The position numbers were made by a program, and so were the translations under genes. A stretch of DNA of 32,816 nucleotides, from positions 1 to 32,816 of the forward strand of contig JALGVA010000087.1 of the NCBI GenBank assembly GCA_029820295.1, given 5' to 3'. Shown piece by piece: positions 8,667 to 32,816 of the stretch (positions are counted from its first letter, which is position 1; each line of letters begins with the position of its first letter). A model generated the notes under the pieces. The model saw nothing but the letters and a program-made list of their open reading frames with translations, had not been told where the DNA came from and made no database searches. Origin of the DNA: Candidatus Zipacnadia bacterium (GTDB taxonomy: Bacteria; Armatimonadota; Zipacnadia; Zipacnadales; UBA5352).

Positions 8667-8678
8667 GCCTCTCGCCGC

Positions 8679-9971: not shown

Positions 9972-10004
9972 TGGCAGTCTTCCGTTGTCGTGGCAAGTGA
10001 GCCA

Positions 10005-11953: not shown

Positions 11954-11983
11954 GGCCGTCTCTCACGGTGGCACGTCAGACTG

Positions 11984-15153: not shown

Positions 15154-16079
15154 TCCCTCTCACTTACGGTGGCGCGCAGCTTGGAGACGGCGTCGGCCAG
15201 CAGCCCGAAGGCGCCGAGCTGCAGACCGACCAGAATCGCCAGAATCTCGCCCTGGAAGATGTTGTTCTCGACCACGATGTCGTAGATCAGCTTGGCCGTG
15301 CCCAGCCCCATGAGCAGGAACGCCGGGGGCATGAACACCTTCAGCGGGTTGAAGTAGCAGAGGATGCGGAAGACCAGCAGGAAGAAGTTGTAGGTGTCCT
15401 TGATCGGCTTGATCTTCGACGAGCCCCGGCGTTCGTGGTAGTCGATGGGGATGTAGCGGACCACCATGTCGTTGCACAGCATCGCCAGGGTGATGGTGCT
15501 GGTGAAGGAGAAGCCCGAGGGCAGCAGGCTCATGAAGCGGATCGCGGCCTGCTTGTCGAAGACGCGCAGGCCGGAGTTCAGATCGGGGATATTCGCCTCC
15601 GCCAGCAGCGACGCCAGCTTGTTGAGCAGCCACTTGGCGGGCCGGCGGACCGCCGGGATCTTCACGTCCCGGCCGATGCGCGCGCCGACCACCATGTCCG
15701 CGCCCTCGAGCTGCTCGACGAGCATGGGGATCTGCTCGGGCGGGTAGGTGCCGTCGGCGTCGGTGATGACGATAACGTCGCCGCGGGCGTGGCGGATGCC
15801 GGTCTTGAGCGCGGCCCCGTAGCCGCGGTTGCGCGGGTGCTGCACCACGCGTACACCATCGACCGCCGAGGCGACAACAGCGGTGTCGTCCTCGGAGCCA
15901 TCGTCCACGACGATGACCTCGTACGAGGCGTCCTGACTCGCCAGCGCGTCCAGGATGCCGCGCAGGTCGTGGTCGATGCCACCCGCCTCATTGAAGGCCG
16001 GCACGACCACGGAGATCTCGGGCGTTGCGGTACGCAAGCCCGTAGCGTCGCTCAGCTCGACCGCGGTGCCGCTTGCCAC
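15150..16079 (-). CDS. GT2 polyprenyl-phosphate glycosyltransferase (DPM1/GtrB/ArnC-like)
   Basis: This 309-residue enzyme has a GT-A catalytic domain beginning ISVVVPAFNEAGG, with Asp59-Asp60 in VDDGS, the metal-binding DAD at residues 107-109 (ITDADGTYPP), and GYGAALKTG. Two C-terminal helices (about 240-262 and 275-298) anchor it in the membrane, as in GtrB. It should load a sugar from a UDP or GDP donor onto a polyprenyl phosphate. The start is a GTG at 16079; no ATG fits the frame and the ribosome site is poor, so the start is the least certain point. It is the first gene of the minus-strand operon and looks richer in GC than most genes downstream. Confidence 0.88.
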   Translation of the reverse strand: MASGTAVELSDATGLRTATPEISVVVPAFNEAGGIDHDLRGILDALASQDASYEVIVVDDGSEDDTAVVASAVDGVRVVQHPRNRGYGAALKTGIRHARGDVIVITDADGTYPPEQIPMLVEQLEGADMVVGARIGRDVKIPAVRRPAKWLLNKLASLLAEANIPDLNSGLRVFDKQAAIRFMSLLPSGFSFTSTITLAMLCNDMVVRYIPIDYHERRGSSKIKPIKDTYNFFLLVFRILCYFNPLKVFMPPAFLLMGLGTAKLIYDIVVENNIFQGEILAILVGLQLGAFGLLADAVSKLRATVSERE

Positions 16080-16660: not shown

Positions 16661-17569
16661 ATGGACGGCTCAGCGCTCAAGGTGCTGGTGATCGGCGGCA
16701 GCGGGTTCGTCAGCGGGACGCTCGCGCGCGTGGCGCGCGATGCCGGGCATGAGGTGTGGGTGGTGACGCGCGGGCAGCGGCCGGTCCCCGAGGGCGTGAC
16801 CGCGCTCACCGCCGACCGCAAGGACCGCCAGGCCTTCGCCGCCGCAGTCGCCGGCGCGGGAGTCGAGTGGGACCTGGCGGTCGACTGCATCGGCTACCAG
16901 GCTGAGGACGCGGTGCAGGACGTCGAGGTGCTGTCTCCGCGCGTCGGGCACCTGGTGTTCATCTCGACCGACTTCGTCTTCGACCCCGCGCGCCGGGCGT
17001 TCCCGCAGCCCTTCGGCAACCCGCACTTCCTGGCCGAAGGCTACGGCGGCGGCAAGCGCGCATGCGAGGAGGTGCTGTCGGCGGCCGACACCGGCGACAT
17101 GCGTTGGACGGTCTTCCGCCCGTGCCACATCTACGGGCCGGGCTCGCAGCTCGGCTGCCTGCCCGAGCATGGGCGCGACCCGGAGTTGATCGCGCGCATG
17201 CGCGCGGGCGAGCCGCTGCGGCTGGTCGGCGGCGGGCACTTTCTGCAGCAGCCCATCTTCGTGCGCGACCTCGCAGAGCTGGCGCTGAGCGCCCACGGCT
17301 GCGACCTCGCGCACCGCGGGATCTACTGCTCGGCCGGGCCGGACATCATCGAGTCGCGCCGCTACTACGAGATCATCGCCGAGGTGCTCGGGGTCGAGGC
17401 GCGCATCGAGGAGGTGTCGGTGGCGCAGGCGCGGATCGACCATCCCGAGTGGGCCTCGTTCCTGTGCCACCGCATCTACGACGTCACGCCGCTGCGGCTC
17501 GCCGGGCTGCAGGTGCCCAACACCCCGATCGCGGCCGGGCTGCGCGAGCATGTGAGGAGCCTGCTGTGA
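16661..17569 (+). CDS. NAD(P)-dependent epimerase/dehydratase-like oxidoreductase (SDR)
   Basis: This 302-residue protein has a GGSGFVSG dinucleotide motif at its N-terminus and an SDR-type Tyr128-Gly-Gly-Gly-Lys132 pair, with STDFVFDP ahead of it where the catalytic Ser/Thr is expected. VFRPCHIYGPG is the usual substrate-loop signature. The group includes atypical sugar epimerases and CSP41-like proteins. There is no signal peptide, so it should act on a free or nucleotide-bound sugar in the cytoplasm. GGAAGGAG (16647-16654) precedes the ATG at 16661; the frame is open upstream but has no coding character. It is the first gene of the catabolic operon and overlaps the lyase start as TGATG. 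Confidence 0.85.
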   Translation: MDGSALKVLVIGGSGFVSGTLARVARDAGHEVWVVTRGQRPVPEGVTALTADRKDRQAFAAAVAGAGVEWDLAVDCIGYQAEDAVQDVEVLSPRVGHLVFISTDFVFDPARRAFPQPFGNPHFLAEGYGGGKRACEEVLSAADTGDMRWTVFRPCHIYGPGSQLGCLPEHGRDPELIARMRAGEPLRLVGGGHFLQQPIFVRDLAELALSAHGCDLAHRGIYCSAGPDIIESRRYYEIIAEVLGVEARIEEVSVAQARIDHPEWASFLCHRIYDVTPLRLAGLQVPNTPIAAGLREHVRSLL

Positions 17570-20463
17570 TGCATATGGAGCGGACCGTGCTGGCGGTGGC
17601 GATCACTCTCGCGGCCGGGAGGATCGGGTTCGCGCAGGGCGAGCCGATCCCGCCGTTCGCGTCGCCGGAGTACATCGAGATGTTCATCCAGGAGGAGACT
17701 CCGTACACGCACGTGTGCCGGTGCGCCCGTCCGGACTGCCCCGGCTTCAGCAACCCCGGCTTCCTCGTGTGGAGCCGCGAGCGGCCCAACGAGATTCAGT
17801 GCAAGGGCTGCGGGACCTGGTACCCGAATGAGGAATTCCCGGAGGACCACTTCATCGAGGTGGACGGTCGGCGCTACCCCTATCATGAGGACGTCCAGGG
17901 GCGGCCGCTGTTCTTCTCGGGGAACGTGCGCTATGCCAAGCTCATGCGCGCGCTCTACGACGCCCGCTACGCCGCCCGTGACTACGCCGAGACCGGGGAC
18001 CCCGAGCGCGGCCGGCAGGCGCGCGACATCCTGTTGGCCATCGCGCGCGTCTACCCCGGGTTCTTCTACGCGCGCACGCCGACCTTCGCCCCGGGCCTGC
18101 CGGTCATTCCCGATGTGCCCGGCAACGCCGGGGCGGGCCGGCTCAAGCAGTACTTCGGCGACTACGGCATGCCCAGCTTCTTCTGCGAGATATGGGAGCC
18201 GCTCGCCGACTCCGATCTGGTCACCGAGGAGCAGCGCGCACAGGTCCGCGCGCTCATCGAGGACTGCGTCGGCACGTGCGTCTTCCCGTACTTCAAGCTC
18301 TACCGCGCCACCGGCAACACCGCCGGGCAGATGCTTACCGACTTCGTGCGCGCCGGCACCACCTTCCCCGAGCTGACCATCCACGATCTCGTGCACGAGC
18401 ACCACTTCGGCGAGGAGCGCATCCTGCGGGGGCCCGACCTGGTGCACGAGGCGATGGAGGGTTCCTACGGCCTGACGAACCTGTTCGCCAACGGCTTCTA
18501 CTCCGACGGCTTCTGGCACGAGGGGTCACTGTCGTACCAGCACATGGTGCTGGTGGGCATACTGCCGGCGCTGCGCATGTTGCGAGGGTACTCGGACCCG
18601 GCAGACTACGTGCCCGCCGACGCCGCGTGGCGGCGCGTCGAGGGCTACGACCCGCTGCAGCGCGAGCGCATCGGGCGGGCGCTGGTGAGCCTGCCGCTGC
18701 TCGCCTTCCCGGACGGGACGGCCCTGACGCTGGGTGACAGCCACAAGGGAGGCGAGGTCATGCCCGGCTGGGAGGAGGCGCTGGGCGAGCTCGCGCCTGA
18801 GGAGGGGCTCTCGGTGCCGAGCGAGAGCGCCTTCCACGATGGCATCGGCGTGAGCGCGCTCCGCTGCGGTGAAGGCACAGACGCGGCGGCGGCCTTCCTG
18901 ACCTACGGCCCGCGCGGCGGCGGGCACTCGCACTACGACCAACTCAACCTGACGTATTACGCCCTCGGGCACGAGCTGGCGACCGACATCGGCTACCCCG
19001 ACTCGACCGACCCGCTGCGCGGGCGCTGGTGGAACCGCAGCGCCGCGCACAACACCGTGGTGGTCGACGGGCGCAATCAGGCGCAGTCGATGGGGCGGCT
19101 GGATCTCTACGCCACGGCGGGGCACTTTCGCGTCGCGCAAGCCTCCTGCGGCAACGCATATCCTGAGCTGGAGGACTACCGGCGCACGGTGGTGCTGGTC
19201 GGCGACGCAGGCGACCCGGACGCGCCGCGCTACGTGGTCGATGTCTTCCACGTGATCGGCGGGAGCACGCATGACTGGGCCTTCCACGGCCAGTCCGAGC
19301 CGGAGCTGCCTGAGGCGCAGTTCGCCGCTGAGGGCATCGAGGCGGCCGACGCGGGCGTCGGCAGTCTGCTTGAGCTGACTCCCGGCGCCGAGCCCGACGT
19401 GATGGGCTATGACTGCGTCACCGACCTGCGCCGCGCGACCGCCGCGGGGCCGTGGTCGGCGCGCTGGATCACGCCGCCCGAGGAGGGCCTGGAGCTGCGC
19501 CTGCTGGCGTTGCCTGAGGCGAGCGAGGAGGTGTTCATCGGCTCCGCGCCCGGGCATCGCCTGCCGCCGAAGGAGGACGTGGACATCGGCAGGCGCATGA
19601 TCTGGCTGTGCCGGCGGCATGAGGGGGAGGCGCCGCTGAGCAGCGTCTTCGCCAGCGTGATCGAGGCCCTGCCGACCGGGTCGACGGACGATGTGAGCGC
19701 GCGGCGGCTGGCGGTGACCGCGCCGCTGGAGTGCGGCGCGGTCGCGATCGAGGTCACGCACGCCCGCGGCCGTGACGTGTTGGTGATCGCGCGTACGGCC
19801 GGCGCCATCGGTGTCGCCGAGGCGGGCCTGCGCATGGACGGGCGTGTCGGCCTCGTCTCCCTCGACGGCGAGGGCGCGGTCACCGGGGCACTGCTGCTGG
19901 ACGGGACGGTGTTGAGCGTCGGCGACCTCACGCTGACCGCCGGGGGGCCGTCACCGACCGGCGAGATCGTCGCGCTGCCCGAGGGCATTACCGACGCGCC
20001 GCTGGTGATCGACGTGGACCTGCCGCCGGCGCCCGACAGCGCCGGGCGCATGGTGACGCTGGCGCACGCGAATCACACGGGCAGCGCGTGGACGATCGCG
20101 CGCGCCGAGCCGCTTGCGGGAGGCGGCACGCGCCTGACGCTGGATCGCTCGGCGTCCGAGGGGATAGGGCGGGTCGGCCGGCTGAGCGAGGACCGGACGG
20201 TGCTCTTCGCCAACGCGGGCTTCCGCCGGCTTGAGGAGGGCCTGAGCGCGCTCTACTACGACGGACCGTGGCTGGGCGTGGGGGAGAGGCGCGTGCCGGT
20301 GCGCGGTGTCGCGCAGCACGGGCGCAATGAGCCGTGGCTGTACGAGGCGACGCTGGCCGAGCCGCTGAGCGCGAGCGACGGGCCCGAGGGCGCGGCCTTC
20401 ACGATCAGCCGCGTGGCGGTCGGCGATCGGGTGGTCGTGCCCAACGTGGTGGCGTGGCCGTGA
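17569..20463 (+). CDS. Secreted heparinase II/III-like polysaccharide lyase with N-terminal Cys cluster
   Basis: This 964-residue protein has a short signal peptide (cut probably after GFAQ). An all-helical toroid region follows, with FWHEGSLSYQ (Tyr323), then a beta-sandwich region with GGGHSHYDQLNL (His453, His455, Asp457) and AAHNTVVVDGRNQ (His494). These match the Tyr/His catalytic and metal-site motifs of heparinase II/III, alginate and chondroitin-type lyases (PL12/15/17/21 and relatives). Such enzymes cleave uronic-acid polysaccharides by beta-elimination outside the cytoplasm. Before the toroid, Cys50, Cys52 and Cys57 with Cys78-x2-Cys81 suggest a small metal-binding or disulphide knot. 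The length exceeds simple lyases, with a C-terminal beta region of about 350 residues. The substrate is unknown. The start overlaps the preceding stop (TGATG). Confidence 0.85.
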   Translation: MHMERTVLAVAITLAAGRIGFAQGEPIPPFASPEYIEMFIQEETPYTHVCRCARPDCPGFSNPGFLVWSRERPNEIQCKGCGTWYPNEEFPEDHFIEVDGRRYPYHEDVQGRPLFFSGNVRYAKLMRALYDARYAARDYAETGDPERGRQARDILLAIARVYPGFFYARTPTFAPGLPVIPDVPGNAGAGRLKQYFGDYGMPSFFCEIWEPLADSDLVTEEQRAQVRALIEDCVGTCVFPYFKLYRATGNTAGQMLTDFVRAGTTFPELTIHDLVHEHHFGEERILRGPDLVHEAMEGSYGLTNLFANGFYSDGFWHEGSLSYQHMVLVGILPALRMLRGYSDPADYVPADAAWRRVEGYDPLQRERIGRALVSLPLLAFPDGTALTLGDSHKGGEVMPGWEEALGELAPEEGLSVPSESAFHDGIGVSALRCGEGTDAAAAFLTYGPRGGGHSHYDQLNLTYYALGHELATDIGYPDSTDPLRGRWWNRSAAHNTVVVDGRNQAQSMGRLDLYATAGHFRVAQASCGNAYPELEDYRRTVVLVGDAGDPDAPRYVVDVFHVIGGSTHDWAFHGQSEPELPEAQFAAEGIEAADAGVGSLLELTPGAEPDVMGYDCVTDLRRATAAGPWSARWITPPEEGLELRLLALPEASEEVFIGSAPGHRLPPKEDVDIGRRMIWLCRRHEGEAPLSSVFASVIEALPTGSTDDVSARRLAVTAPLECGAVAIEVTHARGRDVLVIARTAGAIGVAEAGLRMDGRVGLVSLDGEGAVTGALLLDGTVLSVGDLTLTAGGPSPTGEIVALPEGITDAPLVIDVDLPPAPDSAGRMVTLAHANHTGSAWTIARAEPLAGGGTRLTLDRSASEGIGRVGRLSEDRTVLFANAGFRRLEEGLSALYYDGPWLGVGERRVPVRGVAQHGRNEPWLYEATLAEPLSASDGPEGAAFTISRVAVGDRVVVPNVVAWP

Positions 20464-20498
20464 GTCGCGGGCGTATGAACCAAAGCGGAGGTGCGTTC

Positions 20499-21494
20499 AT
20501 GGACAGGCTGCGCACAGGCGTGATCGGGGTGGGGAAGATGGCCGAGATCCGGCACCTGCCGATCCTCGCCGAGCTGCCGCAGGTGGAGCTGGTCGCGTTC
20601 TGCGACACCAGTGAGGAGAACCTGGCCGTGCGCGGTGACGACTACGGCGTCGCGGCACGTTACGCCGACCATCACGAGATGTTCGACGCCGAGACGCTGG
20701 ACGCGGTGTGCATCTTCATCCCGCCCTACGCGCACACCGACGCCGAGATCATCGCCGCCGGGCGCGGCATCCACGTCTTCGTGGAGAAGCCGCCGACGCT
20801 GAGCATGGAGCAGGCGCGCGAGATCAACACGGCCATCGCCGAGGCGGGCATCATCAGCCAGGTCGGCTTTAACAGCCGCTACCGGCTTTCGGCCGAAGTG
20901 GCGCGCGAGCGGCTGGCCGGGCGCATCGTCACCCAGGCGCTGGTGCACCGCCTGCACGGCTCCGGGGCGCTGGCGTGGTGGTGGAAGATCGAGCGCTTCT
21001 CCGGCGGGCCCTTCGTCGAGAACACCATCCACTACGTGGACCTGCTGCGCTGGCTGGCCGGTGAGTTCGCCGGGGTGTCCGCGCGTGTGGTCGACCGCCC
21101 CGATCCGAGCGAGGAGCTGGACATCCCGCTGAGCATCTCGGCGACCTTCGCGCTGGAAGCCGGCGGACTTGCCAACGTGACCACCTGCGCGGCACTCGAG
21201 CGCGCCGGGCACGCGCAGTTCCTCGTGGTGGCCGACGGCTCGCTCTACGACCTGAGCGACAGCAGCCTGACCATCGACCGCGCGCGCGTCGCCGACGACG
21301 GCGAGCGCCGCAACTGCTACGAGGCGCAGTTCGCGGCCTTCTTCGATGCGATCATCTCGGGCGATCAGTCGCTCACGCGCTCGCCCTACGACGACGGCGC
21401 GCGCTCGCTTGCGGCGGTGCTGGCGGCGGTGCACTCCGCGCGCAACGACGGGGCATGGGTGGACCTGCGCGACGCGGCCTGGGCGGTTGATTGA
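20499..21494 (+). CDS. Gfo/Idh/MocA-family oxidoreductase
   Basis: This 331-residue protein has the N-terminal Rossmann motif GVIGVGKMAEIRHLP, the family-defining Glu96-Lys97-Pro98 (VEKPPTLS) whose Lys contacts substrate, and ENTIHYVDLLRWL with His178 at the usual catalytic position. These cytoplasmic enzymes oxidise or reduce sugars and inositols with NAD(P), sometimes as part of retro-aldol or epimerisation routes. GGAGGTG (20487-20493) fixes the ATG at 20499; an in-frame ATG at 20475 has no such site. It lies 35 bases after the lyase and just before an aldo/keto reductase, so it probably handles a monomer released by the secreted enzymes. Confidence 0.92.
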   Translation: MDRLRTGVIGVGKMAEIRHLPILAELPQVELVAFCDTSEENLAVRGDDYGVAARYADHHEMFDAETLDAVCIFIPPYAHTDAEIIAAGRGIHVFVEKPPTLSMEQAREINTAIAEAGIISQVGFNSRYRLSAEVARERLAGRIVTQALVHRLHGSGALAWWWKIERFSGGPFVENTIHYVDLLRWLAGEFAGVSARVVDRPDPSEELDIPLSISATFALEAGGLANVTTCAALERAGHAQFLVVADGSLYDLSDSSLTIDRARVADDGERRNCYEAQFAAFFDAIISGDQSLTRSPYDDGARSLAAVLAAVHSARNDGAWVDLRDAAWAVD

Positions 21495-21498
21495 GCGC

Positions 21499-22431
21499 AT
21501 GGACTTCCGCGATCTGGGCAGACGGCGGCTGGGGCGCACGGAGATGCCGGTCAGCCCGATCGGGCTGGGCGGCGCGCATCTCGGGCGCGTCGAGGGCGAG
21601 CGCTTCGACGAGCGCCAGGCGGTCGCGACCGTGCACCGTGCGCTCGAGCTGGGCGTGAACCTGATCGACACCTCACCGATGTACGGGCCCAGCGAGCGCT
21701 TCATCGGCGTGGCCCTGCGCGAGTGGCAGGCCGCCGGCGGGCGGCGCGAGGACCTGGTCATCTCCAGCAAGAGCGGCTTCGTCGAGCGCGGAGTGATGGA
21801 CTACTCGGCCGAGTGGACGCGGCGCTCCATCCAGCGCAGCCTGGCGCGCCTGGGCACCGACTACCTCGACGTGGCGCTGGTGCATGACCCGAGCGACCTC
21901 GACCCGGTGACCGCGCCGGGCGGGGCGCTCGAGGCGCTCGAAGAGATGAATGCCACCGGCACGATCCGCGCCATCGGCCTTGGTGTGCGCAACCAGCCCC
22001 TCCACCTGCGCGCCGTGCGCAGCGGGCACTTCGACGTCTCGCTCACGCACTGCGACTTCAACCTCATCGACCGGAGCGCGGCGGAGGAGCTGCTCCCCGC
22101 CGCCGTCGAGCATGACGTGGGCGTACTCAACGGTGCGGCGGTGATGCTGGGTCTGCTGTCCGGCGACGATCCGCGCGCGGCCGCGCCGGGGCTTGGGGGC
22201 TTCGCCTCCCCCCAGCGCATGGCACGCGCCGTCGCGTTCTGGGAGTGGGCGCAGGAACGGGGCGTCAGCCTCCTCGCCGTGAACCTGCAGTTCTGCCTGC
22301 GCGAGCGGCGCATCGCTTCGACGCTCGTCGGCGCGCGCAACCCCACCGAGATCGACGCGGACATCGCCGCGGTGACGGCCGAGCTGCCCGCGGATACATG
22401 GGACGACCTGCGCGCGGTCGGCGCAGGCTGA
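21499..22431 (+). CDS. Aldo/keto reductase
   Basis: This 310-residue AKR keeps the full catalytic tetrad: Asp57 and Tyr62 in IDTSPMYG, Lys91 in ISSKSG, and His129 in LVHDPSD. The C-terminal LVGARNPTEID region is the nucleotide-binding loop. Relatives include L-fucose, D-threo-aldose and L-galactose dehydrogenases, which oxidise sugars to lactones, as well as reductases of sugar aldehydes. The start lies four bases after the upstream stop, so translation is probably coupled to the Gfo/Idh/MocA gene. Together the two can interconvert hydroxyl and keto groups of a released sugar. The direction of the reaction is not visible. Confidence 0.92.
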   Translation: MDFRDLGRRRLGRTEMPVSPIGLGGAHLGRVEGERFDERQAVATVHRALELGVNLIDTSPMYGPSERFIGVALREWQAAGGRREDLVISSKSGFVERGVMDYSAEWTRRSIQRSLARLGTDYLDVALVHDPSDLDPVTAPGGALEALEEMNATGTIRAIGLGVRNQPLHLRAVRSGHFDVSLTHCDFNLIDRSAAEELLPAAVEHDVGVLNGAAVMLGLLSGDDPRAAAPGLGGFASPQRMARAVAFWEWAQERGVSLLAVNLQFCLRERRIASTLVGARNPTEIDADIAAVTAELPADTWDDLRAVGAG

Positions 22432-22462
22432 CGGCAACGGGGGCGGCAACGGCAGCCGAGGG

Positions 22463-22487
22463 AGGGCTTCTTCCTGGAAGAAGCCCT
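22463..22487 (+). terminator. Perfect 10-bp hairpin, possible terminator or processing site
   Basis: AGGGCTTCTT and its exact complement AAGAAGCCCT flank a five-base loop, CCTGG, 31 bases after the aldo/keto reductase stop. No U-run follows, so it may be an intrinsic terminator of the GC-rich type, a transcript-stabilising end or an attenuator before the large LamG gene. Confidence 0.5.
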
Positions 22488-22528
22488 GCGCCCGCGGGCG
22501 CTGGGAGGTCGCGGCCGGGCGCCGGCCG
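22488..22528 (+). repeat. Two further GC palindromes (22488-22501 and 22512-22528)
   Basis: GCGCCCGCGGGCGC is a perfect 14-base palindrome directly behind the first hairpin. CGGCCGG-GCG-CCGGCCG then forms a 7-bp stem with a three-base loop. Along with the preceding hairpin, nearly the whole 124-base gap is palindromic. The elements could act as a mobile repeat (REP-like) or a structured leader. Confidence 0.45.
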
Positions 22529-22573
22529 AAGGGGGCGGGCGCCGGCGGAGCGACCTTGGAGGAGGCCGAGCTG

Positions 22574-25500: not shown

Positions 25501-27067
25501 CTGGGTGCACGGCGACGGTAGGGGTGAGATCCTCAACATCGAGCTGACCTGCCCGCCGGAGTACTCGCGGGCGCAGGCCTTCAACCTGGTGCCCATCGAC
25601 TTCGAGGGCTGGCGTTACGTGGAACTGCTGCTGCGCGAGCGCAACCCGGACCTGCTGGCGCAGTACCAGTGGCCCTTCTCTCTCGCCAGCCACTCCATCG
25701 TGCGCACGCCGCTCACCCGCGACCATGTGAACGAGCTGAACCTCTACCTGAACAACGTGCCGACGGGCGAGAGCGCGGAGGTGCTGATCGGGCCGATCCA
25801 CGCGCTGCCGACGCGTGCGCTCACGATCGAGGCGGGCGCGCTGAGCGTGGGCGAGCAGCAGATGGCGCTGCCGGCGACGCTGACCAGCGGCTCATATGTT
25901 GAGATTGAGCCGGACGGGGCGTGGCGGCTCTACGACGTGCGCTGCGACCTGCTCGAGCGCGGGCGGCTGGACGGCCCGCCGCCGACCTTCGCGAACGGGC
26001 TGAACGCGGTGGAGTTCGCCTGCACCGCGGCCGACGACCTGCCCGCGCGCGCCGAGGTCACCACCTGGACGGAGGGCGAGCCGCTGCGCGGGCGCCGGCC
26101 CGACGCTGAAATCACCTGGGATCAGCTCCGGTACGAGTATGTGGACCCGCGCATCGTGATGGCGCTCGACGGCCGCGAGAACGCCTGGGACGTCATCTGC
26201 CGCGCGGACGGCGCGCGCCTGGGCGTCGAGATGACCGTGCAGCGCTCGGGCGCTTCGGTGGCGGCCTACGACGATCCGGCGGCGCTGACGCTGGAGAGCT
26301 TCGACGATGTCAGCGCCTTCGCCGACGGCCCGGAGAACGAGTTCGCGCAGTACGTCTGGGACGCCGAGACCGAGGGGGTTCCGAGCAAGCCCGGGGTGAC
26401 GCAGGAGTTCGCGGCCAGCACCGAGACGGTGAAGGTCGGCGCGGCGAGCATGCGCTTCTCGGCCACCAGCACGCGCGATAGATCGGACGGCTGGGCGGCG
26501 CGCGGCCGGCGCTTCGCTCCGACGTTGGACCTGTCGGGCCTGCGCGGCATCGGCGTGTGGGTGCATGGCGACGCGCGCGGGCAGTCGATTAAGTTCCAGC
26601 TCCGCGACGTGGAGGGCCGCTGGCATGACATGGTGCAGCGCGTGGACTTCGCGGGCTGGCGCTACCTGGAGTTCGACCTCGCTGGTGCGCAGCTCGACCT
26701 GTCGCAGATCGAGTATCTGATCGTGTTCTTCAACGGCATTCCGGCACATCAGACCGTGAGCTGCTACGTGGACGACATCCGCGCCCTGCCGCGGGTGGAG
26801 ATGGTGCGCAACCCGTCGCTGGCGATCGGCGAGGCGCGCGTCGCCTTCCCGGTGAGCCTGGGCGCGGGGGACGTGCTGCGCTGGGATGGCGGGGCGACGG
26901 CGACCGTGCGCCGCGCCGCGGGCAGCGGCGGCGAGACGGTGGGCGTCGAGGGGACGCTGCCGTCGCTGGCGCAGGGGGTGACGCCGGTGACGCTGGACCT
27001 CGAGCACGCGGGCGAGGGCTTCCGCGTCGAGGTGGGGCTGGTCAAAGACTACCTGTCGGAGCACTAG
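22574..27067 (+). CDS. Giant secreted LamG / TIM-barrel / double jelly-roll carbohydrate-active protein
   Basis: This 1497-residue protein has a signal peptide (about residues 1-27, cut near CMA/QD). A LamG/concanavalin-A-like domain (30-238; WWRFDEGSG, WYHLAATLD and DDVRIYARALTADEI are hallmarks) comes first. A beta region (about 270-440) and a likely TIM barrel (about 476-825) follow, where DQIYQDGSEG (Asp678, Glu681) and IVEAS (Glu707) sit at strand ends like GH27/31/36-type acidic residues. The C-terminal third holds two copies of a jelly-roll module, with GVWVHGD at 975 and 1327 and FxGWRY at 1010 and 1359. I infer an extracellular glycosidase with carbohydrate-binding modules, family unassigned. 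GGAGGAGG supports ATG 22574 over the TTG 18 bases earlier. Confidence 0.8.
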   Translation: MVRVRMLPGTMAMILAALVVLAGACMAQDGPVSWWRFDEGSGSLAEDSSGNANDADVWGAKWARGPFGTALHFTGDDTWVSALGVPGIDGSDQLTVSAWVYWEGTSRYPNIVTGGRWSPGGFLIFVSDRACRFRMGRPGAAASDPDSGWTEGGAELVPQIEFGRWYHLAATLDRPTITTYVDGRQVGSATWDYPVGYSGELLIGRWGSIAQCHQGLIDDVRIYARALTADEIAQMYQSTSEGRIAAGGDVAPYEIIPEQEQVGPAMATFGTRDFEMSLNEAGRVTSLIDRRSGRELLARPTPIARARVGDQVIRRLRCSYEDGRLSLNFGNDQARAVIAVRDMGSWLDFEVLEAEGGIDQLVLLQLDIKPMSLSSPMSGHMTDGEVGVCLRALNIDTRVSLGGRPPRMSAIGEAEHGIVGARAGLIAGPEERMISALREMLQAAGCPTTPLGGPWARDAEENLGSYLFANVSEENVDDWIALAKRGGFAVVHFSSWWQSLGHYEPRAKLFPNGMAGLKECVRRVHEAGLKAGMHTLTGCISTNDPWVTPVPDPRLAADAVYTLARPMDETSDAIYTVEPPGRHDTIWSYAGSGNVIRIGEELIHYAAISREEPFGFLQCTRGAFGTTVSAHPEGAQADHLRQRYLAFYPDENSTLVGELADQIARVYNECGFDQIYQDGSEGMGGWHRMAVMRTAIVERLERPPIVEASAWGHWGWNFHSRVGAWDHSKWGFRMSMDAHCAALPYYREASLLQSQLGWWAVNGPGPMWRAEMPEEMEYFCAKVLANESPMSLQGVGQPGSPANRRMSEYLTMTGRYERLRLAHYFDERVLRRVRRPGEDYHLRQAADGEWEFVPRQYVSHTVTGLDDGSERWLVVNPHDDQPPGLRVTALFGVEPYDSERAVVLADAGDVEAFASGGAARDVTHALQAAGETTPLGEPAMAFSATNDGAERSGAWARMTRRFDPHFDMGPCEALGVWVHGDGRGEILNIELTCPPEYSRAQAFNLVPIDFEGWRYVELLLRERNPDLLAQYQWPFSLASHSIVRTPLTRDHVNELNLYLNNVPTGESAEVLIGPIHALPTRALTIEAGALSVGEQQMALPATLTSGSYVEIEPDGAWRLYDVRCDLLERGRLDGPPPTFANGLNAVEFACTAADDLPARAEVTTWTEGEPLRGRRPDAEITWDQLRYEYVDPRIVMALDGRENAWDVICRADGARLGVEMTVQRSGASVAAYDDPAALTLESFDDVSAFADGPENEFAQYVWDAETEGVPSKPGVTQEFAASTETVKVGAASMRFSATSTRDRSDGWAARGRRFAPTLDLSGLRGIGVWVHGDARGQSIKFQLRDVEGRWHDMVQRVDFAGWRYLEFDLAGAQLDLSQIEYLIVFFNGIPAHQTVSCYVDDIRALPRVEMVRNPSLAIGEARVAFPVSLGAGDVLRWDGGATATVRRAAGSGGETVGVEGTLPSLAQGVTPVTLDLEHAGEGFRVEVGLVKDYLSEH
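25390..25830 (+). repeat. Jelly-roll module, copy 1 (protein-level repeat)
   Basis: This part of the LamG protein carries the ordered marks MAFSAT, RFDP, GVWVHGDGRG, DFEGWRYVEL and an IHALP end strand. All recur in the same order about 350 residues later. The pattern is that of a carbohydrate-binding beta-sandwich. The short beta domain following it (SVGEQQMALP...) is also echoed after copy 2. Confidence 0.7.
26440..26800 (+). repeat. Jelly-roll module, copy 2 (protein-level repeat)
   Basis: The second copy has MRFSAT, RFAP, GVWVHGDARG, DFAGWRYLEF and an IRALP end strand. It is followed by AIGEARVAFPVSL, which parallels the segment after copy 1. The copies are clearly diverged at the DNA level, so this is an old duplication. 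Confidence 0.7.
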
Positions 27068-27107
27068 CGGCGGCAGAGATGGACGGGCAGAGGAGAGTGC
27101 CCCGGCG

Positions 27108-29183
27108 ATGGCCGCGGGGGAGGCGTGTGTTGCGGCAACACTGGCGTTCCTGCTGACGGTCGCGCTGCCGGCGGCCGGTGACTGGCCGTGGCCCGACGAC
27201 GAGTGGGAACGGGTTGACCCCGAGGCCGCCGGCATGGACCCGGCGCTGCTGGCCCGGGCGCAGGAGTACGCGCTGACCGGCGGCGGCTCGGGCTGCATCG
27301 TGCGCGGCGGGCGGCTGGTGCTGGCCTGGGGCGATCAGGCGCGGCGCTATGACCTCAAGTCCACCAGCAAGTCGATCGGCGTGACCGCGCTCGGCCTCGC
27401 CATCGGCGACGGGCTCATCGGCCTCGATGACCGCGCGCGCGAGCATCACCCGACGCTGGGCGATGAGCCGCCCGCGAATCGCGAGACCGGCTGGCTTGAC
27501 GCCATCACCATCAGGCAGCTCGCCACCCAGAGCGCGGGCTTCGCCAAGTCGGGCGGCTGGTCGCCGCTGATCTACGAGCCCGGCACCGCGTGGTTCTACA
27601 GCGACTGCGGACCCAACTGGCTGGCCGAGTGCGTGACGCTGGCCTACGGGCGGGACGTGCAGGAGGTGCTCTTCGAGCGCGTATTCACGCCGATCGGCAT
27701 CACCGCCGACGATCTGCGCTGGCGCGACAACGCCTACCGGCCGCACGAGATCGACGGCATCCCGCGCCGCGAGTTCGGCTCGGGTGTCCATGCCAACGTG
27801 AACGCCATGGCGCGCATCGGCCTGCTCTACCTGCGCGAGGGGCGCTGGGCCGACCGGCAGCTCATCCCGTCGAGCTTCGTCGATCTCGCGCGCACCATCG
27901 ACCCGTCAATCGCCGACCTGCCCGTGCACGAGGGCGACGCCCACGGCGCCGCCGCGCGGCACTATGGGCTGCTGTGGTGGAACAACGCCGACGGGACGCT
28001 GGCGAATGTGCCGCGCGACGCCTACTGGTCGTGGGGGCTGCACGACAGCCTGATCGTGGTCATCCCCAGCCTCGACCTGGTGATCGCGCGCGCGGGCTCG
28101 GACTGGCAACGCGAGTGGAGCGGGCACTACGATGTGCTGCGTCCCTTCCTCGAGCCGATCGTGGCCTCGGTGCGCACCGCCGCCGTCCACCCGGACGCGC
28201 CCTATCCGCCCAGCAAGACCATGGTGGGCCTGGGCTGGGCGCCGCAGCAGCAGATCGTGCGGCGCGCCGAGGGCAGCGACAACTGGCCGATAACCTGGGG
28301 CGATGACGACGCGCAGTACACGGCCTACGGGGATGGCTGGGGCTTCGAGCCGCGCGTGCCCGACAAGCTCAGCCTCGGCCTGGCCCGCGTCACCGGCGGG
28401 CCGGAGGATCCGGTCGGCGGCAACATCCGCTCGGAGAGCGCGGAGCAGATCGGCGACGGGCGCTCGGGGCGCAAGGCCTCGGGCATGCTCATGGTCGGGG
28501 GGCGGCTCTACATGCTCGCGCGCAACGCCGGCAACTCGCAGCTCGCCTGGTCGGACGATCACGGCGCGACCTGGACGTGGGCCGACTGGCGCTTCGAGAC
28601 CAGCTTCGGCTGCCCGAGCTTCGTGAACTTCGGCCGCAACTACGCCGGTGCGCGCGATGAGTTCGTCTACGTAGTCTCCTTTGACAGCGACAGCGCCTAC
28701 CGGCCCGCCGACCGCATGGTGCTCGCGCGCGCGCCGCAGGAGCGGCTGATCGATCGCGACGCCTGGCAGTTCTTCGCCGGCCTCGACGCTCATGGCGAGC
28801 CCACATGGAGCGCCGACGTGGCCGACCGCGCCGCGATCTTCGAGCATGAGGCGCGCTGCTACCGCTCGGGGATCAGCTACTGCGCGCCGCTGGGGCGCTA
28901 CCTGTGGTGGCAGGGGTTGCCCGCGGGCACGGACGCCGCCGACCGCGACGGGCGCTTCGCCGGGGGCCTGGGGGTCTACGAGGCGCCCGAGCCGTGGGGA
29001 CCGTGGCGCACTGTGTACTTCACGCAGCGCTGGGACGTCGGACCGGGCGAGAGCGGCAGCTTCCCGACGAAGTGGATGAGCGCCGCCGGCCGCACGCTGC
29101 ACCTCGTGTTCTCGGGCGACGACAGCTTCGCCGTGCGCCGCGCCGAGTTGTGGCTGCCAGGCGACGCGGACCCCGCGCCGTGA
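27108..29183 (+). CDS. Secreted beta-lactamase-fold serine hydrolase fused to a sialidase-like (BNR) domain
   Basis: This 691-residue protein has a signal peptide ending near PAAG/DW. Residues about 35-345 are a class C beta-lactamase/penicillin-binding-protein fold: the nucleophile motif S85-T-S-K88, a Y164-S-D166 where Y-x-N is usual, and WGLHDSLIVVIP as the third motif. Residues about 365-691 form a separate domain with an Asp-box (S482-D-D-H-G-A-T-W489), SDNWPITWGDDD at its start and FPTKWMS near its end, like secreted sialidase/BNR-type propellers. The first half could be a deacylase of decorated glycans and the second a glycan binder or hydrolase. A fusion of the two is unusual to my knowledge. 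AGGAGAG precedes the ATG. Confidence 0.83.
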   Translation: MAAGEACVAATLAFLLTVALPAAGDWPWPDDEWERVDPEAAGMDPALLARAQEYALTGGGSGCIVRGGRLVLAWGDQARRYDLKSTSKSIGVTALGLAIGDGLIGLDDRAREHHPTLGDEPPANRETGWLDAITIRQLATQSAGFAKSGGWSPLIYEPGTAWFYSDCGPNWLAECVTLAYGRDVQEVLFERVFTPIGITADDLRWRDNAYRPHEIDGIPRREFGSGVHANVNAMARIGLLYLREGRWADRQLIPSSFVDLARTIDPSIADLPVHEGDAHGAAARHYGLLWWNNADGTLANVPRDAYWSWGLHDSLIVVIPSLDLVIARAGSDWQREWSGHYDVLRPFLEPIVASVRTAAVHPDAPYPPSKTMVGLGWAPQQQIVRRAEGSDNWPITWGDDDAQYTAYGDGWGFEPRVPDKLSLGLARVTGGPEDPVGGNIRSESAEQIGDGRSGRKASGMLMVGGRLYMLARNAGNSQLAWSDDHGATWTWADWRFETSFGCPSFVNFGRNYAGARDEFVYVVSFDSDSAYRPADRMVLARAPQERLIDRDAWQFFAGLDAHGEPTWSADVADRAAIFEHEARCYRSGISYCAPLGRYLWWQGLPAGTDAADRDGRFAGGLGVYEAPEPWGPWRTVYFTQRWDVGPGESGSFPTKWMSAAGRTLHLVFSGDDSFAVRRAELWLPGDADPAP

Positions 29184-29198
29184 GATGTGGCGGCGGAT

Positions 29199-29216
29199 GT
29201 GCCGGCGTTCCGGCAC
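29199..29216 (+). terminator. Hairpin in the 129-base gap after the serine hydrolase gene
   Basis: GTGCCGG-CGTT-CCGGCAC is a perfect 7-bp stem with a four-base loop, 16 bases after the stop. No U-run follows. It may end or stabilise the transcript. The rest of the gap (to 29298) holds short CTCG-rich repeats and no gene. Confidence 0.4.
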
Positions 29217-29298
29217 GTGGCGGTGGTGGTCGTGGAGCGATGACGGCTACCGTCGTCGGCCGTTGGCTCGCGGCTCGCAGCTCGTTGCCCGTGGCTGC

Positions 29299-29306
29299 AA
29301 AGGAGG
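29299..29306 (+). promoter_or_regulatory. Near-perfect Shine-Dalgarno AAAGGAGG
   Basis: AAAGGAGG lies six bases before the ATG at 29313 and is the best anti-16S match in the window. It fixes the start and suggests independent, efficient translation of the unknown secreted protein. Confidence 0.8.
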
Positions 29307-29312
29307 ACCCTT

Positions 29313-31067
29313 ATGCGCCCGACAACCGCTCTGATGACGCTGCTGGTGTGCACGCTCGCCGTGCCAGTACTCGCCGTCGATGCGCTTGACTTCTCGACCG
29401 TCGGCATCTACGGCCGCGACTTCGAGGAGTGCGACTTCACCAACTTCAAGTTCTTCCCCAAGCCCGAGAACTACGAGCGCTACGCGCAGATGGTGCGCGA
29501 GGCGAACGAGCGCGGGCAGTTCGTCATGGTCGGCCTGTACACGTACGACCGCGTCTCGCTCGAAGGCCCCATCGAGGAGTACTTCCGCGCCACCGATGAG
29601 CTGCTCGACGCCCTGCCGCTCGAGCTGGTCGATGTCGTCTTCCTCAGCGAGGAGAACATCGCGTGGAACAACGGGCTGGAGATCCAGAACCAGCTCTACG
29701 ATCATGTGAAGGAGCGCTACGCCGACCTCTCCGTCTACCAGTGGTTCACGCCCTACGACACGCCACACGCGGGCGTGCGCGCCGACGGCTGGATCATCGA
29801 CCCCTACCGGCTGGGGACCCAGGACTTCCGCAAGTACCTCATGAAGTGGCTCAGCACCGGCCTGCCGGTCATCAACTGCGTCAACGCCAGCCCCGAGGTC
29901 GGCGACTTCCAGTCCTCGCAGGACCAGGTGGACGTGTGCCGCGAGTTCAACGTGCCCATGTTCTTCTACGCCGTGGACAGCATGCAGGGCAGCCCGTTCG
30001 TGTGGATGCAGACCGACGAGCCTGAGCTGGCGACGTGGCGCGGCTGGTTCATGCGCGTGCGCGAGATGTGCCACGCCACGGATGTCTCGCGGCTCCCGCT
30101 GCCCAGCGCCCAGTGGTCCTACGGCATCCCCATGGAGGTCGCCGGCGGCGCGGACAACCGCTTCACCTACGCCGACGACTTCGCCAACACGAAGTTCATC
30201 GACGATGCCACCATCGACGGCTTCCTGTCGCTGCGCTGGGATGGCCTCGGCGAGCGCCTGGGCCTGCTGGGCGGAGGTGAGGCCACGCTGACCTGGCACC
30301 TGTGGAGCGCATTTGAGGTCCGCCGGCCCACCGTGGCGTTGACCGCGACGCCGGTCGAGGGCGCCACCGGCGAGGTCGCGCTGTCGTATTCGGCGGACGG
30401 CAACACCTGGCAGGAGATGGCGGCCGGGGAGCCGCCGCCCGACTTCGCCGGTCGCAACCTGTGGGTGCGCGCGCACCTCTCGGCGCAGGGCCCCGCCGGC
30501 GAGCCGGCGCTGTGGATCGACGACCTCGCCATCACCGGCGAGACCGTGCCCCCGGCCGAGCCGATCGTGCAGATCGTCCCGGCGCACCGGCGCGGGAACT
30601 TCGAGTGGCGTGATGACTTCCAGTCAAGCCGCGCCATGCACCAGGCGATCATCGCCGGCGGCGAGGACCTGACCTGGGAGCGCGGGCGCGTGAGCATCCG
30701 CGGGCAGGACGGGCGCGCCATCCGTCCGACGCTGCGCTGGCACTTCTCCTCCGAGCGCCCCATGCAGAACGTGACCATCACGGTCGAGAGCTACTCACAC
30801 CGGCAGCTCGGCGCGCACAACGAGATCGGCGTGTCGCTCGACGGCGAGAACCTGCTGCTCAGCGAGACCACCAGCGGCCGCGAGGACTCGACCGGCCGTT
30901 ACACCGGCACGATCACACTCGACCTGTCGGGCGATGAGCGTTTCGCGGACGCGACCGATCTGTGGCTGCACGTGACCCTGGTCAACACTGCCGGGGTGGC
31001 GACCGGGCGCTCAAACGACCTGCGGCTGGTCGAGATCACGGGCAGACTCGCGGAGGAGGCGGGATAG
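29313..31067 (+). CDS. Secreted protein of unknown family, TIM-barrel-like plus C-terminal beta-sandwich
   Basis: I do not recognise a named family. The 584-residue protein has a clear signal peptide (cut near VLA/VD). Residues about 25-260 alternate helices and strands like a glycosidase barrel, with aromatic and acidic residues at strand ends (LSEENIAWNNG with Glu113 and Glu114; YQWFTPYDTP; WIIDPYR). Residues about 290-410 and 425-584 look like two beta-sandwich modules; the latter begins FEWRDDFQSS and ends in a strand-rich, Ser/Thr-rich tail. Its place between a serine hydrolase and a GH-like gene argues for a role in glycan breakdown. Glycosidase activity is an inference only. The stop overlaps the next start (TAGTG). 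Confidence 0.7.
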   Translation: MRPTTALMTLLVCTLAVPVLAVDALDFSTVGIYGRDFEECDFTNFKFFPKPENYERYAQMVREANERGQFVMVGLYTYDRVSLEGPIEEYFRATDELLDALPLELVDVVFLSEENIAWNNGLEIQNQLYDHVKERYADLSVYQWFTPYDTPHAGVRADGWIIDPYRLGTQDFRKYLMKWLSTGLPVINCVNASPEVGDFQSSQDQVDVCREFNVPMFFYAVDSMQGSPFVWMQTDEPELATWRGWFMRVREMCHATDVSRLPLPSAQWSYGIPMEVAGGADNRFTYADDFANTKFIDDATIDGFLSLRWDGLGERLGLLGGGEATLTWHLWSAFEVRRPTVALTATPVEGATGEVALSYSADGNTWQEMAAGEPPPDFAGRNLWVRAHLSAQGPAGEPALWIDDLAITGETVPPAEPIVQIVPAHRRGNFEWRDDFQSSRAMHQAIIAGGEDLTWERGRVSIRGQDGRAIRPTLRWHFSSERPMQNVTITVESYSHRQLGAHNEIGVSLDGENLLLSETTSGREDSTGRYTGTITLDLSGDERFADATDLWLHVTLVNTAGVATGRSNDLRLVEITGRLAEEAG

Positions 31068-32581
31068 TGAGGCGGCTCCCGATCGCGATGGCGTGCATGG
31101 TGGCGCTGACGCCTGTCGCGCCGGCGCTCGGGCAGGACGAGTCGCGGCCGGAGTACCTGCACACGCTCTACTGGCCGGCGATCCGCCCGACGGCGTTCAA
31201 CGCCGGCAAGCCGGTGGTGGACCTGACCACGCCCGAGCGCGTCTTCCCGATCGTCCAGGAGCTGTCGGAACTCGGCGTCAACGTCATCACCTACCATTCG
31301 GTCTATTCGGGCTGGGGCGCGCTGTTCCCTGTCGATGACCCACTGCTGACGGAGGCCTGGTACTGGCCGGAGGGCGCGCAGCCGGTGGACACCTTCCTGG
31401 ACGCCTGCGCGCGCTACGGCGTTGATGGCTATCTCGGCCTGTGGCTGGGCCAGGAGGGCCACCCGACCATCGCCGCGCACGCCATCGACGCGATCATCGA
31501 CCGCTACGCGGGCCGCCCGGGCTTCGCGGGGATCGCGCCGCCGATCGAGGCGCCCTACACCAACATCACCACCGATGATTTCATCGACCTGAGCGCGCAG
31601 GTCAAGCGGCGCGACCCGCGCCTGATGACCATGGACTACCCGCCCTCGCCCTACTCGTTCAAGCAGCTTCAGTGGCTGATGAAGCTCGCCGGTTCGGGCG
31701 TGGTGGACATCGAGAACGTGCAGTTCCACCCGTGCGATGACCGGCTCGCCGACCTGCGCGAGGCGCGCGGGCTGACACTGCTGACCATGGGCTGCTGCCC
31801 GGGCATCCGCAGCATCATTCACACGCACTACAAGAACGGCGTCAACAACCCGCCCGAGCACCCGACGCAGTGGCTGCCGCCCGAGCGCGCCTGGGACGTG
31901 ACTCAGTCGGCGATCATCACCGCCACCCCCGACGGCACCTCGATCTTCAGCTTCCTGCACGGCTTCTGGGGCGAGGAGAGCGGGCCGGGCGGCGGCGACG
32001 CCATGTGGCGGCGGCTCAAGTGGTACGAGGGCATCGTCGGCGTGCAGCGCACGCTGCCTCTCTACGCCTTCGCCCGCAACGCCGCGCGGGTGCAGATCAT
32101 GGTGCCCACGGGCACACTCGAGGACGCGCAGGACCTGCTCGCGCGCTGCTGGGCGCCGCTGGCGCGCGGGCACATCCCGACCGGCTTCTTCGTCGATGAG
32201 CGCAACCTCCCGCCTGAGGCTGAGGTCATCATCGTGCCCGACCTGCAGCGCTGCGACGCCACGCAGGGACGGCTGGTGCAGCGCTTCGCGGCCGGGGGCG
32301 GCACGGTCATCCTCACCGGCGGCCTGCACGCCAGCACCAGCCTCTACCAGTCGCTCGCCGAAGCGGGTGTCATCAATCCGCACGTGCGCGAGGTGCTGGA
32401 CCTGAACGAGCGCCCGGACGTGGCGCCTGGCGATCTCGATGCGGAGTTCGCGCGGCTCATCGGCTTCCAGGGCGGGCCGCTGCCTGAGCCGGAGGAGCCC
32501 GTGCGCCACGCCTGGGGGGATGGCGCCGTCATCGTTGCGCCCGGCGGGCCTGGGATCGCTGGTCCTGGGCGCGCTGTCTGA
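31067..32581 (+). CDS. Secreted TIM-barrel protein with GATase-like domain (putative GH), frame broken near its end
   Basis: The start is a GTG overlapping the previous stop (TAGTG), with GGAGG ahead of it, giving a signal peptide cut near ALG/QD. Residues about 25-330 resemble a glycosidase barrel: YLGLWLGQEGHPT, PPIEAPY (Glu161) and VVDIENVQFHP (Glu216) place acidic residues at strand ends. Residues about 335-430 (RVQIMVPTGTLEDAQDLL to GGTVILTGGLH) look like the class I glutamine-amidotransferase-like domain found in GH42 beta-galactosidases and relatives. The frame reaches TGA at 32579-32581, but coding continues in the +1 frame from about 32550, so the gene is frameshifted here, by mutation or sequence error. 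Substrate unknown. Confidence 0.7.
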   Translation: MRRLPIAMACMVALTPVAPALGQDESRPEYLHTLYWPAIRPTAFNAGKPVVDLTTPERVFPIVQELSELGVNVITYHSVYSGWGALFPVDDPLLTEAWYWPEGAQPVDTFLDACARYGVDGYLGLWLGQEGHPTIAAHAIDAIIDRYAGRPGFAGIAPPIEAPYTNITTDDFIDLSAQVKRRDPRLMTMDYPPSPYSFKQLQWLMKLAGSGVVDIENVQFHPCDDRLADLREARGLTLLTMGCCPGIRSIIHTHYKNGVNNPPEHPTQWLPPERAWDVTQSAIITATPDGTSIFSFLHGFWGEESGPGGGDAMWRRLKWYEGIVGVQRTLPLYAFARNAARVQIMVPTGTLEDAQDLLARCWAPLARGHIPTGFFVDERNLPPEAEVIIVPDLQRCDATQGRLVQRFAAGGGTVILTGGLHASTSLYQSLAEAGVINPHVREVLDLNERPDVAPGDLDAEFARLIGFQGGPLPEPEEPVRHAWGDGAVIVAPGGPGIAGPGRAV

Positions 32582-32816
32582 CGCCATGCGCGTGACCGGC
32601 CTGCCCGACGGCTGGATGGTCGAGCAGTGGCGCGCAGAGGGTGGCGGCGAGTTCCTGGCGCTCTTCGGCATCGAGGAGGGCCAGGTGGCGCGCGACGTGC
32701 GTATCGAGCTGCCCGGCACAACCGCCGACCATGCGTGGCTGGTGACCGGCGAAGGGTCGGAGCGCGTGCCGGTCGAGAACGAGGCGGTGACGCTCGGGAA
32801 CCTGGGTGACAGCTTC
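32550..32816 (+). pseudogene. Out-of-frame continuation of the preceding putative GH gene, cut by window
   Basis: From 32550 the +1 frame is open to the window end (89 codons) and reads as ordinary protein: LGSLVLGALSDAMRV, then DGWMVEQW and GEFLALFG. It joins well to GDGAVIVAPGG in the upstream frame, completing the strand-helix unit that normally follows a GATase-like domain. One extra G or C in GGGCCTGGG (32546-32554) would explain the break. The frame has no start or ribosome site of its own near 32550, which argues against a separate gene. Confidence 0.6.

What the first reader, a model, noticed from the sequence alone, without database searches (positions are those of the whole stretch)
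16661..32816. Unusual oxidative glycan-degradation locus without transporter or SusC/D
Sequence: three predicted cytoplasmic oxidoreductases (SDR, Gfo/Idh/MocA, AKR) are interleaved with five exported proteins (heparinase-like lyase, LamG/TIM/jelly-roll giant, serine hydrolase-sialidase fusion, unknown barrel, GH42-like barrel), all on one strand with mostly tight junctions. Known: heparinase II/III-like lyases act on uronate polymers, and AKR and Gfo/Idh/MocA enzymes oxidise or epimerise sugars. Inference: this is a coordinated system that deacylates, cleaves and oxidatively processes a decorated acidic polysaccharide. At least three of the exported parts fall outside families I can name.
Basis: partly seen in the sequence, partly recalled or inferred. 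Interest (0 to 1): 0.65.

Follow-up and report, generated by a model that had tools for sequence, protein, structure and literature searches.

The report
Mosaic cluster of uncharacterised glycan-degrading enzymes
An uncultured bacterium of the WS1/Armatimonadota group has eight neighbouring genes that look suited to breaking down a complex sugar polymer, but they are a patchwork of separately inherited blocks rather than one fixed machine, and several of the enzymes belong to families that standard libraries do not name.

Summary
The gene content is real: eight same-strand genes (SDR, heparinase-II/III-like lyase, Gfo/Idh/MocA, AKR, LamG giant, serine-hydrolase/propeller fusion, TIM-barrel protein U7, GH42-like barrel BAR8). 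The window is one whole contig, so BAR8 and whatever follows are cut off. The genome has 38 heparinase-family hits, so this lyase is one of many. The proposed single eight-gene system fails its own test: no relative examined has the eight together. Two blocks recur: GFO-AKR (7 of 7 genomes with both orthologs) and fusion-U7 (3 of 3, with BAR8 once). SDR, lyase and giant occur elsewhere with unrelated neighbours. The interest lies in the proteins. The giant's core has no family model; its predicted fold resembles GH101/GH36/GH129/GH31 enzymes. U7 is an unmodelled barrel with a conserved Glu-Glu pair. The fusion joins a SxxK serine hydrolase to a DUF4185/GH183-like propeller with an invariant Asp pair. 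'Oxidative processing' of the polymer is unsupported: the oxidoreductases look cytoplasmic and only GFO-AKR is a conserved unit. Best reading: a locally assembled glycan-degradation neighbourhood with unlinked uptake; substrate unknown.

The parts
16661..17569 (+). SDR: NAD-dependent epimerase/dehydratase-family protein (302 aa), GGSGFVSG and YGGGK motifs
   Evidence: Pfam PF01370 62 bits; motifs; orthologs at 57-84% identity in 14 relatives, the seven neighbourhoods read all different
17569..20463 (+). Exported heparinase II/III-like polysaccharide lyase (964 aa); N250, H293, Y323 and GHSHYD (H453, H455) invariant
   Evidence: PF07940 47.8 bits, cut-off 24; nearest solved relatives PL17 alginate lyases, Uly1040, other alginate lyases, Hep III; alignment A4; one close ortholog (68%, G003) among housekeeping-type genes
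20499..21494 (+). GFO: Gfo/Idh/MocA oxidoreductase (331 aa; an upstream ATG at 20475 is possible)
   Evidence: PF01408 84.8 bits; nearest solved DgpA and myo-inositol 2-dehydrogenase; adjacent to AKR in relatives
21499..22431 (+). AKR: aldo/keto reductase, L-galactose-dehydrogenase-like (310 aa)
   Evidence: PF00248 158.8 bits; nearest solved L-galactose dehydrogenases, E 2e-36
22556..27067 (+). GIANT: exported protein of about 1490-1503 aa: LamG lectin domain, beta-sandwich plus clan-GH-D-like barrel core (about residues 255-1180), C-terminal CBM11-like part; candidate catalytic Asp684/Glu713. True start probably 22574-22604
   Evidence: Laminin_G_3 79 bits; model pLDDT 88.7; Foldseek to GH101, GH36-like, GH129, GH31; invariant D430/E459 of the core in A2; PDB profile hits to GH36-type alpha-galactosidase/galactosaminidase E 0.004; CBM_11 in 9 of 17 members
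27108..29183 (+). BLAC: exported fusion of S12-type serine hydrolase (STSK at 85, YSD at 164) and DUF4185/GH183-like propeller (Asp391/Asp409, Asp-box at 482)
   Evidence: PF00144 67.8 bits; DUF4185 25.5 bits, below cut-off 39.5; all 7 propellers aligned hit DUF4185, best E 4e-11; A5/A6 invariants
29313..31067 (+). U7: exported TIM-barrel protein with two beta-sandwich domains (584 aa), conserved Glu113-Glu114 pair after barrel strand 4
   Evidence: no Pfam/NCBIfam match; model pLDDT 88, Foldseek to modular GH30/GH101/GH85 enzymes with low TM-scores; A1; matches in 22 relatives, some partial
31067..32816 (+). BAR8: exported GH42-like barrel protein, interrupted by a frame break near 32540 and cut by the contig end (full length about 870 aa in relatives)
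   Evidence: A3; PDB profile hits to the C-terminal domain of GH42 beta-galactosidases, E 0.0013; sequence of the end
20499..22431 (+). Conserved block 1: GFO-AKR gene pair
   Evidence: both orthologs within 6 kb in 7 of 7 relatives that have both
27108..32816 (+). Conserved block 2: BLAC-U7-BAR8
   Evidence: all three contiguous in G004; BLAC-U7 in G001 and G005

Best explanation
This is a glycan-degradation neighbourhood of a WS1/Armatimonadota bacterium, assembled from separately inherited blocks, whose exported enzymes are largely uncharacterised. Outside the cell the lyase would cut a uronate-containing chain by beta-elimination. The fusion protein would remove O-acyl groups with its serine hydrolase half, and its propeller half would cleave or bind furanoside units. 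The giant would release an alpha-linked sugar while held to the polymer by its lectin domains. U7 and BAR8 would act as further glycosidases. Products would be taken up by transporters encoded elsewhere, and inside the cell GFO-AKR (a conserved pair) and the SDR would oxidise or epimerise the released sugars. Shown: gene content, families or predicted folds, conserved candidate active-site residues, and block conservation. Inferred: all substrates, the order of steps, co-expression, and import by unlinked transporters.
For: Families and folds. Conserved motifs: lyase N250/Y323/GHSHYD; SxxK and YSD; propeller Asp pair 18 apart, as the GH183 catalytic pair D170/D188 in PMC10115798; giant D684/E713 29 apart against 32 for the GH101 mutants D764N and E796Q listed. 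Blocks conserved: GFO-AKR 7 of 7 genomes, BLAC-U7 3 of 3. Blocks not joined elsewhere: every pair across blocks 0 of n. The congener G001 has different neighbours at both the AKR-giant and the giant-BLAC junction. Relatives in the same family carry 9-34 heparinase hits each, so such genes are lineage-wide stock. In relatives, block 2 is again flanked by GH-like proteins (GHL6, GH123_N).
Against: Same strand, mostly tight spacing, uniform GC3 of 0.92-0.95 and no terminator-like site found (a weak consensus scan) would also fit one recently formed operon. Most relatives are fragmented MAGs of unequal completeness, so some linkages could be missed. No substrate is demonstrated. The glycosidase readings of U7 and BAR8 rest on fold alone.
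Confidence: 0.62

Rival explanations
1. One dedicated, co-transcribed eight-gene (or longer) system for a single decorated acidic polysaccharide, recently assembled in this species.
For: All genes on one strand with two 1-base overlaps and a 4-base gap; uniform composition; no internal terminator-like site; esterase, lyase and glycosidase activities would be complementary.
Against: No relative carries the set; SDR, lyase and giant occur with unrelated neighbours; even the congener has the blocks apart. Two gaps of 129 and about 140-170 bases allow separate promoters.
Confidence: 0.22
2. The exported enzymes trim or recycle the cell's own exopolysaccharide, whose biosynthesis genes lie divergently at 1-16079.
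For: Adjacent glycosyltransferase, flippase and methyltransferase genes; lyases are known in exopolysaccharide operons (general knowledge).
Against: The biosynthesis half has clearly lower GC and GC3 (0.658; 0.70-0.92) than the enzyme half (0.710; 0.92-0.95), which suggests a separate origin; orthologs of the lyase, giant and fusion elsewhere were not seen beside such clusters; 38 heparinase hits suggest foraging.
Confidence: 0.1
3. The genes are merely neighbours with no functional link beyond block 1 and block 2.
For: 0 co-localisations across blocks in all testable relatives; the SDR is a free-standing conserved gene; very large stocks of heparinases and Gfo/Idh/MocA candidates per genome.
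Against: Five exported carbohydrate-type proteins within 15 kb on one strand is more clustering than unrelated genes would be expected to show (judgement, not computed).
Confidence: 0.06

Closest known systems
Polysaccharide utilisation loci (Bacteroidota SusC/D type)
   Same: Clustered exported lyase, esterase and glycosidase-type genes with sugar-metabolism genes.
   Different: No SusC/D recognised; gene set not conserved as a unit; the contig ends inside the cluster.
Heparinase II/III superfamily lyases (PF07940; PL12, PL15, PL17, PL21 and relatives)
   Same: Conserved C-terminal domain and the Asn/Tyr/His active-site positions.
   Different: Nearest solved relatives are PL17 alginate lyases, with only partial alignment; PL family and substrate not assignable.
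GH101 / GH129 / GH36 / GH31 alpha-glycosidase fold group
   Same: Giant core: N-terminal beta-sandwich plus barrel, invariant Asp and Glu after successive strands, spacing 29 (GH101: 32).
   Different: No Pfam or NCBIfam match; global TM-scores (by query length) 0.22-0.35; LamG and CBM11-like additions.
GH183 / DUF4185 endo-D-arabinofuranases (PMC10115798)
   Same: Propeller with two invariant Asp 18 residues apart; all aligned members hit DUF4185.
   Different: Window protein scores 25-27 bits against a cut-off of 39.5; fused to a serine hydrolase.
GH42 beta-galactosidases
   Same: BAR8 matches their C-terminal domain weakly.
   Different: Only E65 and E161 are invariant Glu in the six sequences; no clear second catalytic Glu late in the barrel.
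3-keto-glycoside (BT_2158-type) and DgpA-type oxidative sugar pathways
   Same: A Gfo/Idh/MocA oxidoreductase with DgpA as nearest solved relative.
   Different: Far below the curated scores (43.5 against 750 bits); no 3-keto-disaccharide hydrolase in the window; paired with an L-galactose-dehydrogenase-like AKR instead.

Membership tests
Heparinase II/III superfamily lyase (PF07940) | Score above the Pfam gathering cut-off | tested here: met
   47.8 bits against 24
Heparinase II/III superfamily lyase (PF07940) | Conserved active-site Asn, Tyr and His | tested here: met
   N250, Y323, H453, H455 invariant in 14 sequences; assignment of roles from general knowledge of the superfamily
A specific PL family (e.g. 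PL17) | Full-length similarity to a characterised member | tested here: inconclusive
   Partial alignment only, about positions 387-525; NCBIfam oligoalginate lyase 14 bits against 1400
Serine hydrolase / beta-lactamase family (PF00144, S12) | Gathering score, SxxK and Tyr motifs | tested here: met
   67.8 bits against 27; STSK at 85, YSD at 164
GH183 (DUF4185) | Score above the Pfam gathering cut-off | tested here: not met
   25.5-27.2 bits against 39.5
GH183 (DUF4185) | Two catalytic Asp about 18 residues apart | tested here: inconclusive
   D391 and D409 are invariant in A5 and A6 with the spacing of the reference pair (PMC10115798), but equivalence is by spacing only, not by alignment or structure
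Sialidase (GH33) | Recognisable sialidase domain | tested here: not met
   Only an Asp-box; PDB sialidase hits E 0.05-0.5, no Pfam sialidase hit
GH101/GH129/GH36 group (giant core) | Sequence membership in a family model | tested here: not met
   No Pfam glycosidase hit for the core in any of 17 members
GH101/GH129/GH36 group (giant core) | Fold and Asp/Glu catalytic pair | tested here: inconclusive
   Foldseek E 4e-16 to GH101 but TM about 0.3 over all domains; D430/E459 invariant
GH42 | Two catalytic Glu in the barrel | tested here: not met
   Only E65 and E161 invariant among Glu, alignment of 6
SusC/D polysaccharide utilisation locus | SusC/SusD pair in the locus | tested here: not met
   None among the 18 proteins of the contig scanned with Pfam; the contig is cut at its 3' end
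One conserved eight-gene system | Co-localisation of the eight families in other genomes | tested here: not met
3-keto-glycoside oxidative pathway | Glycoside 3-dehydrogenase above cut-off plus 3-keto-disaccharide hydrolase | tested here: not met
   43.5 against 750 bits; no PF06439 in the window proteins

The most novel reading that the evidence does not exclude
The fusion-U7-BAR8 block and its partner genes in relatives form an undescribed enzyme set for an acylated, furanoside-containing polysaccharide: the serine hydrolase half de-acylates, a GH183-like propeller half cuts the chain, and U7 is a new glycosidase family with a Glu-Glu catalytic pair, while the giant's core founds another new family of the GH101/GH36 fold group.
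Probability: 0.15. Interest if true: 0.6.

Novelty: new variant of a known kind. Interest (0 to 1): 0.36.

Why it matters
WS1/Armatimonadota-type genomes carry dozens of heparinase-family lyases and many exported proteins with enzyme-like folds that standard family libraries do not name. The window offers concrete, testable candidates: a giant alpha-glycosidase-like enzyme, a barrel family with a conserved acidic pair, and an esterase-propeller fusion. It also warns that a tidy-looking cluster in one MAG need not be a conserved system: the blocks, not the cluster, are the units to study.

Tried and rejected
A PA14 search of the genome found nothing and told little. The genome-contig scan with the giant gave only 5 loci, useful mainly for naming two relatives. 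Sialidase identity of the propeller: rejected. GH42 membership of BAR8: rejected for lack of a second conserved Glu. 3-keto-glycoside oxidation: rejected on scores and missing hydrolase. Own-exopolysaccharide recycling: not favoured because of the composition break and the neighbourhoods of orthologs. Promoter and terminator scan: nothing found, uninformative at 70% GC. Literature on WS1 glycan degradation: little found. My gene calls in relatives come from a simple codon-usage script; its first version missed genes in lower-GC loci and was self-trained afterwards, and the self-trained run miscalled some loci (L144, L154, L047), for which the first run or tblastn was used.

Full report
What was checked. 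The window is the complete contig C145 (32816 bases) of a 5.63 Mb metagenome-assembled genome, 98.6% complete and 4.1% contaminated. I therefore place the genome in the WS1/Armatimonadota group; this is by kinship, not by a named record.

The observation. Eight + strand genes are present as described. Pfam confirms SDR, Hepar_II_III_C, Gfo/Idh/MocA, AKR, Laminin_G_3 and Beta-lactamase domains; U7, BAR8 and the core of the giant match no Pfam or NCBIfam model. SDR-lyase and U7-BAR8 overlap by one base, GFO-AKR are 4 bases apart, giant-fusion 40; the AKR-giant and fusion-U7 gaps are about 140-170 and 129 bases. BAR8 changes frame near 32540 and runs off the contig; relatives are 869-894 aa long. 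GC3 is 0.92-0.95 throughout the eight genes, and their GC is in line with other loci of the same genome, while the divergent exopolysaccharide-type genes at 1-16079 are lower.

Is it one system? I searched relatives for each protein (60 or 100 genomes per query), fetched neighbourhoods and mapped all eight query proteins onto them. No other genome examined has the eight, or the junctions between blocks. Counting close orthologs, GFO and AKR lie together in 7 of 7 genomes that have both; BLAC and U7 in 3 of 3; BLAC and BAR8 in 1 of 1; U7 and BAR8 in 1 of 2. Every other pair is 0 of the 1-5 genomes with both. The relatives with GFO-AKR span four genera in three families and several are close to each other, so they are not seven independent events. 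In G032 a second GFO-AKR locus has an extra gene between the two. The congener G001 has GFO-AKR, the giant and BLAC-U7 on three contigs: its AKR is followed by a convergent propeller gene, its giant is preceded by a guaA-like gene (my reading of the sequence), and its BLAC is preceded by a different protein that recurs beside BLAC in G004 and G009. The lyase has one close ortholog (68%, G003), set among housekeeping-type genes. The SDR occurs in 14 relatives at 57-84% identity, and the seven neighbourhoods I read are all different. Fragmented assemblies limit the power of these counts.

Context. PF07940 hits number 38 in this genome (33 at E below 1e-7) and 9-34 in the other members of its family. 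First-look Gfo/Idh/MocA candidates exceed 100. ABC sugar-type binding proteins (PF01547) number only 6. So this lyase is one of many, and uptake genes, whatever they are, need not be linked. Published surveys report high CAZyme counts for Armatimonadota (PMC9765126); the two marine classes described in PMC10290634 encode few extracellular CAZymes.

The parts. Lyase: N250, H293, Y323 and GHSHYD are invariant in 14 homologs (with H453 and H455); nearest solved sequences are PL17 alginate lyases, E 9e-26, aligned over the C-terminal part only. Giant: the core (residues about 255-1182) was modelled at mean pLDDT 88.7; Foldseek ranks GH101 first (E 4e-16), followed by GH36-like, GH31 and GH129 enzymes, with TM-scores of about 0.3 over all domains. 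D430 and E459 of the core (D684 and E713 of the ORF) are invariant, lie at the ends of successive barrel strands and are 29 apart; the GH101 mutants listed, D764N and E796Q, are 32 apart. This is a resemblance, not membership. U7: mean pLDDT 88.0, a TIM barrel and two beta-sandwiches; best Foldseek hits are modular GH30, GH101 and GH85 enzymes at low TM-scores. A Glu113-Glu114 pair follows the fourth strand, and the seventh strand ends at Asn191, so a standard two-Glu clan-A arrangement is not evident. Fusion: SxxK and YSD motifs in the first half; the second half hits DUF4185 in all seven propellers aligned, though the window copy is below the curated cut-off. Its D391 and D409 are 18 apart, as are the catalytic D170/D188 of a GH183 enzyme (PMC10115798). 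BAR8: PDB profile hits to the C-terminal domain of GH42 enzymes, but in six sequences only E65 and E161 are invariant Glu. AKR: nearest solved L-galactose dehydrogenases. GFO: nearest solved DgpA, over the nucleotide-binding half only.

Mechanism. I commit to an extracellular degradation neighbourhood in which the lyase, esterase half, propeller, giant and barrels act outside the cell, and GFO-AKR and the SDR act on imported sugars, with uptake unlinked. Content and active-site conservation are shown; substrate, order and co-expression are inferred.

Verdict. Observation confirmed with corrections; interpretation partly supported. The interest lies in the unclassified enzymes and in block 2, not in the eight-gene cluster.

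Noticed in passing
window 1-16079 (- strand): Exopolysaccharide/O-antigen-type cluster: NAD-epimerase, glycosyltransferases of the GT2 and GT4 types, flippase, PMT_2-type membrane protein, methyltransferase, GNAT protein, with lower GC (0.658) and GC3 than the other half; it may be an acquired island.
   Followed up: partly
window 32520-32816: Frame break in BAR8 near 32540; the reading continues in another frame to the contig end. Assembly error and real lesion cannot be told apart.
   Followed up: partly
whole genome G000 and relatives: 38 PF07940 heparinase-family hits in one 5.6 Mb genome and 20-37 in many order-level relatives, against 6 PF01547 sugar-binding proteins in the window genome.
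   Followed up: partly
L119, L122, L153, L124: In relatives, BLAC and U7 are flanked by a recurring set of further exported proteins of about 650, 770, 880 and 1100 aa; the 770-aa one matches GHL6 (hypothetical glycosyl hydrolase 6), the others no Pfam family over cut-off.
   Followed up: partly
L144 (499-1368) and L040 (13294-14163): A second SDR-type subfamily ('EAGHEVTVVSSGRTP') lies near GFO-AKR in the congener and just upstream of the giant in G028.
   Followed up: no
L120 4659-5852: A sulfatase-like gene (sequence inspection only) directly downstream of the BAR8 homolog in G006, followed by a GH38-like gene.
   Followed up: no
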